Shown here piece by piece: positions 9,692 through 15,832 of a DNA stretch of 43,667 nt. The translations under genes and the position numbers were made by a program. This DNA is from an uncultured Bacilli bacterium (GTDB taxonomy: Bacteria > Bacillota_I > Bacilli_A > RF39 > UBA660), in the NCBI GenBank assembly GCA_944358355.1, contig CALVQY010000010.1:1-43667 (forward strand). The letters are read 5' to 3'. The notes under the pieces were generated by a model. The model was not told the origin of the DNA. It saw only the letters and a program-made list of their open reading frames with translations, and ran no database searches. The stretch's first letter is position 1. Every line of letters begins with the position of its first letter.

Positions 9692-11795
9692 ATTTATTAT
9701 TAACAAGTCGTAATTCATTATCTATAACATCAAAAGTAACAGTTTCTCCATATTTAATAGTACCTTTAACAAGTTCATGAGCAAGTAAACTCTCTATAGT
9801 TTTACTAACTTCACGTTTTAAAGGTCTAGCTCCATAATTAACATCATAACCAGCATCAACTAAATAGTCTTTAGCCTTATCAGTTAATTTAATATGAATA
9901 TCATTCATAGATAGACGACCCTCAATATCAGAAATAATCTTATCAAGTATTTGATATATTGCATCTTTAGTAAGAGGTTTAAAGACAATAATTTCATCTA
10001 CACGATTAATAAATTCTGGTCTAAAGTGACTTCTTACTTCATCCATTACTTTACTAGTATCACCATCTAATATGTATTCACTACCAAGATTAGATGTCAT
10101 GATGATAATGGTATTTTTAAAGTCAACAGTTCTACCATTAGAATCAGTTATTCTACCATCATCAAGTATTTGTAGTAAAAGGTTTAAAACCTCAGGATGA
10201 GCTTTCTCTATTTCATCAAATAAAACTATACTATATGGATTACGTCTAACCGCTTCCGTAAGTTGTCCTCCTTCTTCATATCCAACATATCCTGGAGGAG
10301 AACCAATTAAACGACTAACACTAAACTTCTCCATATACTCGCTCATATCGATACGAACCATATGTTTCTCATCATCAAAAAGCTCATAAGCAAGAGTTCT
10401 AGCTACTTCAGTTTTACCAACACCAGTAGGACCTAAGAATATAAATGAACCAATAGGTCTATTAGGATCTTTTATACCACTACGAGACTTAATTATCGCT
10501 TCACTTACTAAATGTAGTGCTTCATCTTGACCCATAACACGTTTTTTCATACTATTCTCAAGATTAAGAAGTTTCTCCTTCTCACTACTAACTAACTTAC
10601 TTAAAGGAATATTAGTTATTTTAGAAATAACACTAGCGATATCTTCTTCTGTAACATTATCACTAAGTAATTTCATCTCATCTTTACTCTTTAACTCTTC
10701 AAGTTCCTTCTCTAACTTAGGAATAGTACCATGTTGTAATTTAGCAGCGTTTTCTAAATCATATCTATTCTCAGCTTGTTCTAATTCAAAACGAGCTTTC
10801 TCAATCTCTTTCTTTTTAGATTGTATCCTATCATTAAGTCCTTTCTCTTCTTCCCAAGCTTCTTTATATTCCCTCTCTTTAGCTTTCAATTCACCTAACT
10901 CTTTATCTATCTCATCTTTTCTCTTCATAGATAATTGATCTTTCTCTTTCTTAATCGCTTGTCTTTCAATTTCAAGTCTCATAATCTTACGAGTTAATGA
11001 ATCAAGTGCATTAGGAACAGAATCCATTTGTACACGAATAGTAGCACATGCTTCATCTACTAAATCTATCGCTTTATCTGGTAAATATCTATCAGTAATA
11101 TAACGATTTGATAAAGTAGCAGCGCTTACTAAGGCTTTATCATGAATAGTAACTCCATGATGAATTTCAAACTTTTCTTTAAGTCCACGAAGTATTGTTA
11201 TCGTATCTTCTACACTAGGCTCACTAACAATAATCTTTTGAAAACGACGTTCAAGAGCCCCATCTTTCTCTATATATTTACGATATTCATTTAAAGTAGT
11301 TGCACCAATCACATGAATCTCCCCACGAGCAAGCATAGGTTTTAAGATATTAGATGTATCCATCGCTCCTTCAGTATTACCAGTACCTACAATCATATGA
11401 ATTTCATCAATAAACATAATAATAGAGCCTTCACTCTTTTTAATCTCATTTAATACTTTTTTAAGACGTTCTTCAAATTCACCACGGTATTTAGCACCTG
11501 CAACAAGACTAGCCATATCAAGTTCCCAAATAGTTTTATTTTTTAAGCTAGCAGGAACATCTCCACGTTCTATTCTTAGAGCAAGTCCTTCTACAATAGC
11601 AGTTTTACCAACACCAGGTTCACCAATTAAAACAGGGTTATTCTTCGTACGGCGAGATAAAACACGAGTAATACTACGAATCTCTTCATCACGACCAATA
11701 ACAGGATCAATCTTACCTGCTCTAACCGCTTCATTTATATTACGACCATATTTTTCTAATACATTCTCATTTTCTTCATCTGGATTTTGATACAT
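9690..11795 (-). CDS. clpB: ClpB disaggregase without the N-terminal domain
   Basis: A 701-aa two-ring AAA+ chaperone. NBD1 begins almost at once ([10 protein letters not shown], Walker A GEPGVGKT 58-65, Walker [10 protein letters not shown]). A long coiled-coil middle domain follows (about 265-390), characteristic of ClpB rather than ClpC. NBD2 has [34 protein letters not shown] and [10 protein letters not shown]. The ~140-residue Clp_N substrate domain of full-length ClpB (~860 aa) is missing and the frame is not open upstream, so this is a native short form. AAAGGAGA precedes the ATG. Its promoter overlaps a CIRCE operator, so it should be repressed by HrcA and induced by heat. Confidence 0.95.
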
Positions 11796-11824
11796 AATAC
11801 ATCTCTCCTTTCTTACACAAGCAT

Positions 11825-11853
11825 ATTATATAACAAATTTTAGCACTTGTCAA
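11825..11853 (-). promoter_or_regulatory. Sigma-A promoter of clpB
   Basis: On the minus strand TTGACA (11848-11853), a 17-nt spacer and TATAAT (11825-11830). It is a consensus promoter whose -35 lies inside the CIRCE operator. Confidence 0.9.
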
Positions 11854-11866
11854 TAGAGAGTGCTAA
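11840..11866. promoter_or_regulatory. CIRCE operator (HrcA site)
   Basis: TTAGCACTT, a 9-nt spacer and GAGTGCTAA. This is the CIRCE inverted repeat (TTAGCACTC-N9-GAGTGCTAA) with one mismatch. It covers the -35 and part of the spacer of the clpB promoter, as expected for HrcA repression. Confidence 0.93.
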
Positions 11867-11869
11867 ATT

Positions 11870-11898
11870 ATTATAAAAAGAAAAAGAGTAAAAACTCT
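11870..11898 (-). terminator. Weak terminator after the small membrane protein
   Basis: On the minus strand AGAGT and ACTCT (11885-11898) form a 5-bp stem with a 4-nt loop, followed by a T-rich tract. Confidence 0.45.
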
Positions 11899-11942
11899 AA
11901 TTATTATTATCTAGCGCTTCTTTATTATCATTTACATAATTA

Positions 11943-12326
11943 CTATTTTTCTTTCTTTAATTTAAAATATAAGTAAATAGCATATATAAACAAACCAAGA
12001 TAAATAAGACTAAAAATATTACTAATCATATTACTAATATTATCTGGAAAAAGAGTATAACTAGTTTCAACACCATTTACAGTAATATTAAATGTTCCCG
12101 TTAATATAATAGGTACAATTGTTATAATAAGACCTACTTTTTTATTAAAAGTAAGTTTACCTAATAAATAAATATTAACTATAGGAATAAAAGCCATAGG
12201 TGTTCCTTTTCCATATACCAGCTTGTTAAACTTATTTAAAAAGATACCAACTGCTATATAAATAACGATAGCAATGATTGAAAAGACAATCATATATGCC
12301 ATTAAAAATTGTAATAAACTTTCCAT
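11943..12326 (-). CDS. Small membrane protein, DUF5684-like
   Basis: A 127-aa protein with about three or four membrane helices (residues ~8-30, ~65-80, ~98-122). The segment FNKLVYGKGTPMAFIPIVNIYLLGKL resembles the conserved IPIYN-type motif of small DUF5684-like membrane proteins. No enzymatic residues are evident. The ATG follows GAGAGG by 5 nt. It has its own promoter. Function is unknown and the family call is tentative. Confidence 0.65.
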   Translation of the reverse strand: MESLLQFLMAYMIVFSIIAIVIYIAVGIFLNKFNKLVYGKGTPMAFIPIVNIYLLGKLTFNKKVGLIITIVPIILTGTFNITVNGVETSYTLFPDNISNMISNIFSLIYLGLFIYAIYLYFKLKKEK

Positions 12327-12353
12327 AAATACCTCTCATATCTATTTTTAATA

Positions 12354-12382
12354 AGCATAGCATATAAAACTATATATGTCCA
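12354..12382 (-). promoter_or_regulatory. Promoter of the DUF5684-like gene
   Basis: On the minus strand TGGACA (12377-12382), a 17-nt spacer and TATGCT (12354-12359). Nothing else is evident in the rest of the 274-bp gap up to 12600. Confidence 0.55.
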
Positions 12383-12600
12383 TGCGATTGATTTAAATAG
12401 TGTAAAGGTATTACATTGTATATTTACTTAATCAAGTTATACCATAACATCTTTATAAATATATCTATACTAAGAATATTCTTAGCAATATTACGATGAT
12501 ACTCTATCTTTTCTCAAAATCATATAGTCTTATAGTAACAATAATATATGTTAATTATTATAATCTTAAAGCACTACCTTCCATTAATTAATCATCTTCT

Positions 12601-13509
12601 TTACACTAATCTTGCAATTTGATTTTCTGAAAGGCCTGTATATTCGCATACTTTAGAAATAGGAAATCCATCCTTAAGAAGATTTTTAGCAATAGACTTT
12701 TCACGTTGTTTAGCACCCTGCTTAATACCTTGTTTAATACCTTGTTTAACGCCTTGCTTTCTAGCAGTAATTTTTATACTGTTTTCTACTCTTCTTCTTT
12801 CCTCTTCTTCATCGTAAAGTCCAATAGTATAAGCATCATTAGTTAATCTCTTTAATTCATTAGCAACTTCCATTAACTCTTCATCTCCTTTCGCTAATTT
12901 TTCAATCTCATCTACTTTTGTCAAAGTTAATATTACTAGTTCTTTTTCTAATTTACTTAACTCTAATCCTCTATCATATTTTTCTCTTATTAATTTTAAA
13001 TTAACATATATTTTACCCCATTTATCACTTTCTATTATTCCATATTTATCTCTTGATTTAAACTCTAATAGATTCTCTTTATTTAAGAAACAATAAAAGT
13101 TATTTATATTTATCTGTATAACTTTAGGCATACTGGCATAACTTTTCGCTCTTCTTATCAAATCATTTTTTACTTTACCTAAATAAGCATCATTTCTCTC
13201 TATTAATCCGTCCCATTTTCTTCCATTAAATTCATTATTAATTACATATCCTTTTACTTCAAATAATACATCTGACACTTTACCTTTTTCTAAAACATTA
13301 TCTATTACATACTCAGTATTCATTTCTTTGTAAGTATCTAACATTAGTTTTTTAGATATACTTGTTAATTTAGATGAAGTATCTGCTCTATACTTAGGAC
13401 AATTTCTCATAATAGCTTTAAAAATACAATCATAAGTAGCAGGAACAATTTCTCCTTTTCTTCTTAATTCATTTACTATTTCTTCTAATCTTTTCTTAGT
13501 AATAGCCAG
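12601..13509 (-). CDS. Rpn/PD-(D/E)XK nuclease family protein (recombination-promoting nuclease/putative transposase)
   Basis: About 302 aa. The N-terminal part (TYDCIFKAIMRNCP...) and the ENLLEFKSRDKYGI...LIREKYDR middle resemble Rpn/PD-(D/E)XK transposase-like proteins, with the acidic residues expected in VLFEVKGYVINNEFNG. The C-terminus shows the typical GVKQGIKQGIKQGAKQ tetrapeptide repeats, then KNLLKDGFPISKVCEYTGLSENQIARL, a helix-turn-helix-like tail. These proteins cleave DNA and are often high-copy; a role in recombination is known only for E. coli RpnA. The frame is open to ATG 13542, but this lies within the -10 region and before AAAGGAGG (about 13516-13523). CTG 13509, 7 nt after that site, is the likely start, which is unusual. 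Confidence 0.78.
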   Translation of the reverse strand: MAITKKRLEEIVNELRRKGEIVPATYDCIFKAIMRNCPKYRADTSSKLTSISKKLMLDTYKEMNTEYVIDNVLEKGKVSDVLFEVKGYVINNEFNGRKWDGLIERNDAYLGKVKNDLIRRAKSYASMPKVIQININNFYCFLNKENLLEFKSRDKYGIIESDKWGKIYVNLKLIREKYDRGLELSKLEKELVILTLTKVDEIEKLAKGDEELMEVANELKRLTNDAYTIGLYDEEEERRRVENSIKITARKQGVKQGIKQGIKQGAKQREKSIAKNLLKDGFPISKVCEYTGLSENQIARLV

Positions 13510-13532
13510 GGTAATTCCTCCTTTCTGCAATA

Positions 13533-13561
13533 TATATAGCATAGCCTATAAATGATTGCAA
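13533..13561 (-). promoter_or_regulatory. Promoter of the Rpn gene, attached to repeat copy B
   Basis: On the minus strand TTGCAA (13556-13561), a 17-nt spacer and TATATA (13533-13538), in the same position relative to the repeat as the adhesin promoter. Confidence 0.6.
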
Positions 13562-13664
13562 AAAGGCAATTTTTAAAATTAAAGAAAAATATGCTTTCAA
13601 TTTTTAATTTTCTCTAGGGGATTTTTAAATTTTGATATGCAAAATACCCTCAATTTACAAAATT
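13556..13664 (-). repeat. Intergenic repeat module, copy B
   Basis: The minus-strand copy of the 109-bp module also found at 7482-7590: gapless, about 76% identical, same spacing to promoter and start region. It lies immediately upstream of the Rpn gene. Confidence 0.8.
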
Positions 13665-13763
13665 GTTATAAATTTAAATTTTTTTCATCACTCCTTGCCT
13701 TTCCATCTTCTAATAAAGTCTCCCATCTATCTATAAAGTATCATAATAGATAATATTAGTCAA

Positions 13764-13790
13764 TAGAAAAAAGCAACTAATTTGTTGCTT
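13764..13790 (-). terminator. Terminator of the variable-protein gene
   Basis: On the minus strand AAGCAAC pairs with GTTGCTT (13771-13790) across a 6-nt loop, followed by a T run. Confidence 0.85.
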
Positions 13791-13803
13791 ATTCATAAAA
13801 TTA

Positions 13804-15708
13804 TTAACTACCCAAAGTTAGCACGAATGGATCTGATTTAGTTCCTGTACCTGTAGTTATCTGCACGCTAGATTTTAGATTAATGGATGGCCGCACCCCA
13901 AACGCGTACGAAGGACTACCGTTGCTCGCGCTACCATTGTCGTTCACAATACGCACGCTAGACGTACTATATGGGGTTAATGTCCAATAGGCTGTATTAT
14001 CACTATATCTATCAAATTGCCCTGACATTAGTTCTCCAAAACGAAGTAATCCTACTTTAGCATCTGTCGTTGTGGTATATCCTGACATATCAGTATCTGT
14101 ATATTTTGCTAATTTATATGATGTTCCACTTCCTACTGTTCCTAAATACCAAGTAGTACTATCTTCTATCATTGAACTATAACTACTATCAACGTAATTT
14201 GTTAAATAGTCGCCATTTAAAAATGCTCCTATAGTATTACTACTTGAAAAACTAGTATTACTTCCAAAGGCACTTGTTATAAAAGTTCCAGAACTCTTTA
14301 ACGGTTCAGCACTTACTATCTTTGTACCTGTTCCATTTTCATGGCTTACTATTCTATATAGATTATTTTCATCATTTCCAAATCTTACATATTCTCCACT
14401 ATATCTACTTGAAAGTAGGGTTACCGAAAGGTCTGTATCATTATCTCCGTTTAAGCGATAAGGATTATCTATTGTTCCATCTCCACTCACGATACGAACG
14501 CTAGATTTTAGATTTATTGATGGCCGCACCCCATACGCGTTCGAAGGACTATCGCTGCCCGCGCCACCATAGCTGCGCACATTACGCACGTCAGACGTAC
14601 TATATGGGGTTAATGTCCACCACCAAAGTCCATTATTCAAATAGCCAGTTGAACTGCTTGCTTCTCTATAACTTGTTACATATTCATAATAATTTAATAA
14701 TCCTACAGCATCAGTTACCATTGTCGTTTCTGCTGGCTTACTTGATGAGGTAGTCAAAGTAACATTCCATTTAGCATCTGTTACAATAAAATTCTCATAA
14801 TCCCTTAAATTACCTAAAAAGCCATCAATACTTGTATCATTTAGCCACTCTTCCATATAACTTCCTGCAAAGTCTGTACTACCACTGGAATAGGTAATTG
14901 CACTTATATTCCATTGAGTTACTAACTTAGTAGTCTTTGCTTCATTATTTACACTCACCGCTCTCCATAATTTTCCACTATACCAGATATAGTTATTTGG
15001 GTCTTCTCCTATTATAAATGTATCTATTCCATCATCAAATGTACTTCCATTATCTCCTACGTTTGCTAGTACTACCTCACTTACTGGACCTGTTATAACT
15101 GGCATCTTATCTCCATCTTTACCATAGATATTTATTTGTACACTAAATTGTAATCCTCCTCCATCATCTTGAGGATTATAACTTTCATCTACATACATTC
15201 TAAGTCTATATTTATTACTTTCACTACTATTCATACTACTTGTATATAAACTCATCTCTCCTGCTGGCCTTCCTGTATAATCGTTAGATGTATTCTCTTC
15301 ATTATATACTTCTGGACTCATTAACTCTTCTTCTGTGCCATCATCTTCTATTCTTGTCAAATATAACTTAATATATTTACCATCAATTGTTCCTTCTCCT
15401 ACTTCTTTAGCACTTATTTCATAGTTAATATTTACATCGCCTACTATTTTACTACTTACCGTAAAATCAAAATACTCTCCGGGATTTAATCTTTTCTTTC
15501 CTGTCTCATCAGTTGTAGGTAAGGCTCCGTTTAAGGAAATAGTATTACTACTTTCAGTATAACTCATCGTAATAGAACCTGTTGTTATACTATTTTCTCT
15601 TTGTCCTACTCCAGTAAACCTAAAAGCTGCGTATGATACTCCTATTAAAACTATTACTAATAATAACATTAATCCTATTATAATTATCTCTTTTCTTGCC
15701 TTCACCAT
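13804..15708 (-). CDS. Secreted variable protein: TasA/camelysin-like N-domain and two DUF6273-like (CLec-type) domains with DGR-type variable regions
   Basis: About 634 aa. A signal-anchor (residues ~8-25, ending VSYAAF) is followed by a TasA/CalY-like beta-sandwich (to ~190). Two tandem domains of about 210 residues (roughly 205-415 and 425-634) then follow. Each has the WTLTPYSTS...GVRPSINLKSSV core of DUF6273-like, C-type-lectin-like proteins. The cores (W364-~404 and W575-~615) are encoded by near-identical 122-bp repeats that differ at 16 sites, all involving coding-strand adenine. The rest of the two domains is strongly diverged. This indicates a target of a diversity-generating retroelement, presumably displaying variable ligand-binding faces outside the cell. 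ATG 15708 is preferred over GTG 15723 because GAGGAGA lies between them. A promoter is seen at 15833-15862. No reverse transcriptase is nearby. Confidence 0.88.
   Translation of the reverse strand: MVKARKEIIIIGLMLLLVIVLIGVSYAAFRFTGVGQRENSITTGSITMSYTESSNTISLNGALPTTDETGKKRLNPGEYFDFTVSSKIVGDVNINYEISAKEVGEGTIDGKYIKLYLTRIEDDGTEEELMSPEVYNEENTSNDYTGRPAGEMSLYTSSMNSSESNKYRLRMYVDESYNPQDDGGGLQFSVQINIYGKDGDKMPVITGPVSEVVLANVGDNGSTFDDGIDTFIIGEDPNNYIWYSGKLWRAVSVNNEAKTTKLVTQWNISAITYSSGSTDFAGSYMEEWLNDTSIDGFLGNLRDYENFIVTDAKWNVTLTTSSSKPAETTMVTDAVGLLNYYEYVTSYREASSSTGYLNNGLWWWTLTPYSTSDVRNVRSYGGAGSDSPSNAYGVRPSINLKSSVRIVSGDGTIDNPYRLNGDNDTDLSVTLLSSRYSGEYVRFGNDENNLYRIVSHENGTGTKIVSAEPLKSSGTFITSAFGSNTSFSSSNTIGAFLNGDYLTNYVDSSYSSMIEDSTTWYLGTVGSGTSYKLAKYTDTDMSGYTTTTDAKVGLLRFGELMSGQFDRYSDNTAYWTLTPYSTSSVRIVNDNGSASNGSPSYAFGVRPSINLKSSVQITTGTGTKSDPFVLTLGS
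13865..13986 (-). repeat. Variable repeat VR2 (DGR-type)
   Basis: 122 bp encoding residues ~575-615, with about 49% GC in an AT-rich gene. It is identical to VR1 for the first 27 bases and at every non-adenine position. At the 16 differing positions one of the two copies has A on the coding strand (9 A/G, 5 A/T, 2 A/C). Variable codons read AGC, ATT, AAC, GAC, AAT, AGC, AGC, AAC, GGT, TAC, TTT, mostly derivable from AAC/AAT. Confidence 0.9.
14498..14619 (-). repeat. Variable repeat VR1 (DGR-type)
   Basis: 122 bp encoding residues ~364-404, about 52% GC. Compared with VR2 it has 11 amino-acid-changing codons and 2 silent changes, with no difference that lacks adenine. Variable codons read GAC, AAT, CGC, AGC, TAT, GGC, GGC, AGC, GAT, AAC, TAT. 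The invariant GC-rich end GGGGTGCGGCC near the 3' side could act as the homing-initiation segment. Confidence 0.9.
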
Positions 15709-15832
15709 ATTCATTCTCCTCACTACTTATTCTTATCTATATCCCGTATTCTTATACTTTAAACATATATTTAAATATAAATATATTTGACATTATCTCA
15801 AACTATCTTAAACTATTCTTATATTCAAACCT

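What the first reader, a model, noticed from the sequence alone, without database searches (positions are those of the whole stretch)
13865..14619. Two adenine-specific variable repeats: a DGR target protein without a local reverse transcriptase
The 122-bp repeats at 13865-13986 and 14498-14619 (minus strand) align without gaps and differ at 16 positions. All 16 involve adenine on the coding strand in one copy (9 A/G, 5 A/T, 2 A/C); C/T, G/T and C/G differences number zero. If difference types were random, about half would lack A, so 16 of 16 has a chance near 1 in 65,000. Ordinary divergence would also give as many C/T as A/G. Variable codons fit AAC/AAT ancestors, 11 residues change, and the flanks of both domains are strongly diverged. 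Repeats have about 50% GC in an AT-rich gene. DGRs mutate A positions during copying of a template repeat into C-type-lectin-fold proteins, and the protein has just such a fold (DUF6273-like) behind a signal-anchor and a TasA-like domain. No RT or template repeat is seen in the window. A trans-acting DGR with two acceptor sites in one surface protein is unusual.
Basis: partly seen in the sequence, partly recalled or inferred. Interest (0 to 1): 0.95.

Follow-up and report, generated by a model that had tools for sequence, protein, structure and literature searches.

The report
Orphaned target of a lost hypermutator
A predicted surface protein of this Bacilli bacterium carries nearly the same 122-base segment in two otherwise unlike domains, likely written there by a reverse-transcriptase system that mutates adenines; that system is absent beside the gene here, remains with a shortened enzyme gene at the matching place in one sister species, and has its template cut by mobile DNA in another.

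Summary
In detail: two 122-bp repeats, 16 differences, all involving adenine, in two DUF6273 domains without detectable similarity before the repeats. They are most likely variable repeats (VRs) of a diversity-generating retroelement (DGR). The genome has three DGR-type reverse transcriptases and at least eight two-VR target genes. In congeners the template repeat (TR) lies 90-100 bp behind the target, followed by accessory genes and RT; over nine loci 230 of 492 TR adenines are changed in VRs against 70 of 968 other bases.

Trans action is not supported: no cognate TR was found in this 93%-complete genome, 27 solitary VRs tested in five congeners differ at 4-15 non-A sites from TRs of their own genomes, and the locus is syntenic with one that in G019 keeps TR, accessory genes and a shortened RT. 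So this is probably an orphan. Against that, 12 of 14 VR differences from an equally coreless orthologue fall on inferred TR adenines, and TRs do not always fit the VRs beside them.

New: 8 of 41 TR sites in the genus, including this genome's own, carry a recombinase-trio (RIT-like) element or its end, seven at one TR position. In passing: another DGR here has five alternative templates.

The parts
13804..15723 (-). Target gene, 639 aa: N-terminal hydrophobic segment, then two DUF6273 domains each ending in a VR
   Evidence: ORF; PF19789 50.1 bits, two stretches; domain 1 model pLDDT 96.2, C-type-lectin-like matches
14498..14619 (-). VR1 (first variable repeat, from residue 369)
13865..13986 (-). 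VR2 (second variable repeat, from residue 580)
13773..13803 (-). Junction: where other loci have TR, accessory genes and RT, the stop codon is here followed at once by a GCAACAAATTAGTTGC hairpin
   Evidence: same junction in congener G024 (L074)
12601..13542 (-). PDDEXK_2 (Rpn-like) gene, below the Pfam cut-off; a 70.5% identical gene lies directly 3' of the RT in L069
9690..11795 (-). ClpC-like gene (name by my reading), synteny anchor: a 97% identical gene follows the RT in G019:C52
16372..17634 (-). S41-peptidase-like gene (name by my reading), synteny anchor: an 80% identical gene precedes the target in G019:C49
15914..16357 (+). Helix-turn-helix-like gene (name by my reading), synteny anchor: 85% identical over 61 aa beside the target in G016:C4

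Best explanation
The two repeats are most likely variable repeats of a diversity-generating retroelement (DGR) target protein whose own template repeat and reverse transcriptase were probably lost. Shown: the repeats are 87% identical while the domains around them are not detectably alike, all differences involve A, and congeners carry TRs beside such targets with changes concentrated at TR adenines; target, TR, two accessory genes and RT lie together on one contig in L069, L071 and L072. Inferred: a single TR beside this gene was copied with errors at its adenines and written into both domains, giving two independently variable faces on one protein; the stretch from TR to RT then went, leaving the target beside an Rpn-like gene of the kind that can follow the RT. 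Shown: in congeners TRs of this family are often broken, 8 of 41 by a recombinase-trio element or its end, including the only TR of this family found in the window's own genome; that this caused the loss at the window's locus is not shown.
For: VR identity against unlike flanks. TR/VR pairs: 18 VRs in 9 congener loci, 230/492 A sites changed, 70/968 non-A (one of the nine, G013:C48, has an interrupted TR). Own-genome C8: 22/53 A and 0/114 non-A in the aligned pieces, 1 non-A of 31 per VR when the left half is taken whole. RTs carry SQ and YMDD motifs; the C36, C46 and G026 RTs match phrog_1423; Avd-like PF22296 over cut-off in the C36 and C46 types. Synteny: G019:C49 (S41-like, target, TR) overlaps G019:C52 (accessory genes, 245-aa RT frame, ClpC-like) by an exact 77 bp; G016:C4 has ClpC-like, one recombinase, TR left half, target, HTH-like. 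Solitary VRs: 27 with a median of 10 non-A mismatches to the best own-genome TR, against a median of 3 for 35 VRs beside a TR. TR survey: 41 left ends in 23 of 35 genomes.
Against: No cognate TR was seen, so A-specificity at this locus rests on VR-VR and VR-orthologue comparison. The G024 orthologue shares the coreless junction, yet differs at 14 VR sites (12 on inferred TR adenines) against 2 of 572 bases between and after the VRs: rewriting after the loss, hence supply in trans, or exchange of VR alleles; the inferred A sites are partly defined by those sequences. Of 35 VRs beside a TR, 10 have 9 or more non-A mismatches and 17 fit another locus's TR as well or better. For 5 of 27 solitary VRs (G019:C3, G008:C55, G008:C21) an own-genome TR is the best of the 19 compared, at 4-13 mismatches. 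The RT frame at the syntenic G019 locus is itself short, 245 aa against 313-316. The genome is a 93-contig, 93%-complete assembly.
Confidence: 0.75

Rival explanations
1. A DGR elsewhere in the genome still rewrites both VRs in trans from a template missing from the assembly.
For: 12 of 14 VR differences between two coreless orthologues fall on inferred TR adenines, inside a tract otherwise about 0.35% diverged; three RTs in the genome, two with frames of 360 and 354 aa; remote targets are known in Treponema denticola (PMC4891356, passages).
Against: No TR fits: the C8 TR halves differ at 10 of 57 non-A sites from each VR and the C36 TR is another type; two TR-flank patterns find only C8 in this genome; solitary VRs of five congeners do not closely match their own genomes' TRs.
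Confidence: 0.18
2. The target reached this place alone (transfer or duplication) and never had a local core.
For: Nearly identical tracts between G000 and G024 suggest recombination here; most other solitary targets of this genome are not followed by the hairpin seen here, C9 is.
Against: Orthologous neighbours surround a target with TR and a short RT in G019 and a target with a TR remnant in G016.
Confidence: 0.1
3. Gene conversion between the two domains plus diversifying selection produced the pattern, without a DGR.
For: VR1 and VR2 share all bases outside the 16 variable sites.
Against: Conversion does not confine differences to A on one strand; congeners have non-coding, A-rich TRs beside RT genes.
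Confidence: 0.03

Closest known systems
Treponema denticola DGR remnants (isolates with target genes but no TR or RT; SP32 remote gene)
   Same: Target genes outlive a lost core and keep a VR matching another TR variant (PMC4891356, passages read).
   Different: Here two VRs lie in two domains of one protein, and sister species show other states of the same locus.
DGRs with several VRs in one ORF
   Same: 31 of 271 multi-VR DGRs have VRs in a same target ORF (PMC6642488, passages); an ORF of three tandem paralogues is noted in PMC3521204 (passages).
   Different: Here all eight targets compared in one genome have two VRs, in DUF6273 domains that in the window share no detectable sequence before the VR.
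DGRs with a disrupted RT gene
   Same: RTs broken by insertions, nonsense or frameshifts while VR/TR pairs stay A-only (PMC3521204, passages).
   Different: Here the template repeat itself is a repeated insertion site.
RIT (recombinase in trio) elements
   Same: Three tandem tyrosine recombinases between inverted repeats.
   Different: Inverted repeats of 84-92 bp rather than 34 bp; an apparent target site, a property listed as not formally tested for RITs (PMC10214605, passages).

Membership tests
DGR target gene | VR differs from a cognate TR almost only at TR adenines | tested here: inconclusive
   No cognate TR found; VR1/VR2 differences 16 of 16 A-involving; congener loci with TR meet it to differing degrees
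DGR target gene | VR at the C-terminal end of a C-type-lectin-like domain | tested here: met
DGR target gene | DGR-type RT in the same genome | tested here: met
   Three RVT_1 hits over cut-off; SQ and YMDD motifs in all three; phrog_1423 for C36 and C46
DGR target gene | RT and TR next to the target | tested here: not met
   No RT on contig C10 and no TR found in the window; TR and a short RT at the syntenic locus of G019
RIT element (the insertion in TRs) | Three tandem, overlapping tyrosine recombinase genes | tested here: met
   325, 317 and 416 aa in G000, all Phage_integrase; same trio in G022 and G024; a complete trio was not seen at the other six TR sites
RIT element (the insertion in TRs) | Terminal inverted repeats | tested here: met
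   92 bp 95.7% in G000 and G024, 84 bp 98.8% in G022
RIT element (the insertion in TRs) | RitA, RitB and RitC subgroup membership | not tested
   No tree of recombinases was made

The most novel reading that the evidence does not exclude
DGR template repeats are the dedicated integration site of a recombinase-trio mobile element: it would recognise the AACGCGAA core of the template, a sequence that rewriting can destroy in the variable repeats, split the template and switch hypermutation off, leaving orphaned targets frozen. If it can excise precisely, it would be a reversible off-switch.
Probability: 0.5. Interest if true: 0.88.

Novelty: new variant of a known kind. Interest (0 to 1): 0.72.

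Why it matters
One syntenic locus is seen in several states (template with accessory genes and a shortened RT; template cut by an element remnant; core absent in two species), so DGR decay can be followed directly. The template-occupying element makes RIT target specificity, listed as not formally tested in PMC10214605, testable, and suggests a natural off-switch for a hypermutation system. The same genus has a DGR with a bank of alternative templates.

Tried and rejected
Exact search for a 25-base piece of the inferred window template in viral contigs: 0 hits. Genus-wide pattern of 40 bases with up to 3 mismatches: three TRs in G002, G013 and G019, none in the own genome. Element-end palindrome in viral contigs: 0 hits. 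C8 TR as template for the window: rejected. C36 TR: fits a different target on C30 (13 of 40 A, 5 of 72 non-A changed). First structure model, 31 sequences: pLDDT 39.6, discarded; a second with 83 sequences was used. Sequence search of solved structures: 0 matches. TasA-like domain: not found. PHROGs for the target: phrog_9958 of unknown function and a weak Hoc-like match. Literature listings for insertions in template repeats, several templates, RIT insertion sites or this genus: no title or abstract start that describes a template repeat as an insertion site; I did not read the full texts, and PMC12875486 was seen only in listings.

Full report
Observation. The two 122-bp repeats are exactly where stated and differ at 16 sites, all with A in one copy. 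The stated odds are inflated because A takes part in two thirds of ordinary substitutions here; a strand-symmetric test still gives 0.001. More telling, the two DUF6273 domains (PF19789) have no significant similarity before the VRs and low flank identity, yet share 87% of 122 bp. Something copied one sequence into both.

Own genome. The host is an unnamed 1.5-Mb, 93-contig assembly. A congener's contig (G032:C6, matched by its length of 4458) is titled Candidatus Onthousia faecavium, class Bacilli. Eight target proteins with two VR-like segments each were compared, 16 VRs in all; one (C58) has an in-frame stop. DUF6273 itself has 14 matches on 10 contigs. Three RT genes are on C8, C36 and C46.

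The system in congeners. The TR lies 90-100 bp 3' of the target stop, in non-coding DNA between conserved flanks, and can be followed by a ~115-aa protein, a ~114-aa weakly Avd-like protein and an RT of 313-316 aa; L069, L071 and L072 show all of it on one contig (the RT frame of L072 is 304 aa), while other loci are cut by contig ends or have shortened genes. In the C36 type the first protein is MutS_I (27.3 bits) and the second bAvd (42.5 bits); in the C8 type they score below cut-offs. Over 18 VRs in 9 loci, 230 of 492 TR adenines are changed against 70 of 968 other bases; G003:C33 fits poorly and G013:C48 has an interrupted TR. A search with the inferred template hits 33 of 35 genomes of the genus and 0 of 25 others examined.

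Own-genome DGR of the same family. At C8 the TR halves match the local VRs at 0 of 114 non-A sites in the aligned pieces, with 22 of 53 A sites changed; taken whole, the left half has 1 mismatch of 31 with each VR, next to the insertion. The halves are separated by about 3.4 kb with three tyrosine recombinase genes between 92-bp inverted repeats. A second trio with 93-bp repeats lies between TR and the accessory genes. The RT frame is 249 aa against 313-316 in congeners. By inference this DGR acted until recently and is now inactive.

The window's template. The C8 TR does not fit the window's VRs: 10 non-A mismatches of 57 for each VR. The best congener TR is G026:C63, with 5 of 52 and 8 of 59 and 6 of 50 for both among 19 TRs. 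Searches with the inferred template found only VRs and TRs of other loci in this genome, and none by pattern. Two TR-flank patterns find only the C8 site here.

Local or remote. 35 VRs beside a TR have a median of 3 non-A mismatches to it; 27 solitary VRs from five genomes have a median of 10 (range 4-15) against the best TR of their own genome (Mann-Whitney 1.9e-5; the sequences are related, so this is no clean probability). The solitary VRs were taken from the listed rows, a capped list, on contigs without a TR-flank match. Limits: 10 of the 35 have 9 or more mismatches, 17 of 35 fit a TR of another locus as well or better, and for 5 of the 27 an own-genome TR is the best of 19, at 4-13 mismatches. 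Local templating is the commoner pattern, with TR turnover, not a strict rule.

Synteny (gene names by my reading unless a family call is cited). G019:C49 carries the window's neighbours (S41-like 80%, 165-aa protein 64%, target 74%) and a TR of normal length; its end overlaps G019:C52 by exactly 77 bp, and C52 carries the accessory genes, a 245-aa RT frame and the ClpC-like gene (97%). The 77-mer could be shared with another DGR of G019, but the neighbours on both sides identify the locus. G016:C4 has ClpC-like, other genes, one recombinase, element end, TR left half, target and HTH-like. The window and G024:C54 have target, hairpin, Rpn-like gene, ClpC-like gene.

A result that pulls the other way. 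Between the window and G024 a tract of about 1.2 kb is nearly identical (2 of 572 bases between and after the VRs), but VR1 differs at 9 and VR2 at 5 of 122; 12 of these 14 fall on inferred template adenines (Fisher 2e-6 for the excess; 1e-5 for A sites, the latter partly circular). Since both lack the core, rewriting in trans after the loss, or exchange of VR alleles, must be allowed.

Templates as insertion sites. A 27-bp TR-flank pattern (up to 3 mismatches) finds 41 sites in 23 of 35 genomes, with no control hits. By my reading: 17 normal spacings, 2 internally shortened, 14 truncated relics, 8 with the element or its end. In seven of the eight the palindrome TTATAAGACATGTCTTATAA follows GGYAACGCGAA or a close variant; G007:C2 is a diverged form, and G011:C106 has only the palindrome. 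The full trio is seen inside a TR in G000 and G022; G016 keeps one recombinase gene and G032 part of one. Both junctions are seen in G000, G022 (one contig each) and G012 (two contigs), with AACGCGAA or a variant on either side. A scan of the species-genome collection with the palindrome gives 6 records, whose contig lengths are those of six of these sites; the tool may leave out the window's own genome. Insertions sit at different chromosomal places in G000, G022 and G016, and left halves differ by 3-17 of 47 bases between species, so several independent events are likely. The element is 99.94% identical over 3385 bp in G000 and G024 although an aligned 7.9-kb chromosomal stretch is 93.3% identical, which argues for recent movement. 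The G024 copy fills its contig, so its site is unknown.

Verdict. The window most likely holds an orphaned two-VR DGR target. Orphaned targets are known from T. denticola; the two unlike domains, the locus in several states, and above all the recurrent occupation of the template by a recombinase trio are the new parts.

Noticed in passing
L324 (own genome contig C46): TRs 3633-3530, 3317-3220, 2974-2871, 2662-2562, 2343-2237; VR 4602-4499; Avd 1720-2112; RT 671-1735: A second DGR in the same genome has five different non-coding template repeats with common ends and 312-343 bp spacing, for one VR. The VR fits TR1 (17/27 A, 0/77 non-A; other TRs 10-21 non-A). In the five congeners compared the best-fitting member differs: TR5 of 5 in G016, TR2 of 4 in G019, TR3 of 3 in G033 and G004, TR1 of 4 in G032. 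G009 has 4 repeats, G010 and G011 10 each, some not A-rich, G028 2 on a cut contig, G029 none by this pattern. It looks like a switchable template bank. PMC6642488 mentions an atypical DGR with 6 unique TRs (passages); one search listed nothing closer.
   Followed up: partly
L020:10218-7055 (own genome C8): A second three-recombinase element with 93-bp inverted repeats lies between the split TR and the accessory genes, not in the TR.
   Followed up: no
L021:992-2215 and L218:5318-6853 (own genome C36 and C30): A third DGR type with MutS_I-like and Avd-like proteins and its TR directly 3' of the RT; its VR is in a target near the end of contig C30 (13/40 A, 5/72 non-A changed).
   Followed up: partly
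L025:4417-6255 (own genome C58): A sibling two-VR target gene is interrupted by an in-frame stop.
   Followed up: no
window 11600-12600 and 13400-14600: Two tracts nearly identical to G024 (VRs apart) within a stretch mostly 5-10% diverged, suggesting recent recombination between species.
   Followed up: no
L212 (G024:C92) and L020:13877-10493: The 8-bp sequences at the two ends of the element (AACGCGAA and AATGCGAA) are swapped between G000 and G024, as would be expected if end sequences are carried along during transposition.
   Followed up: no
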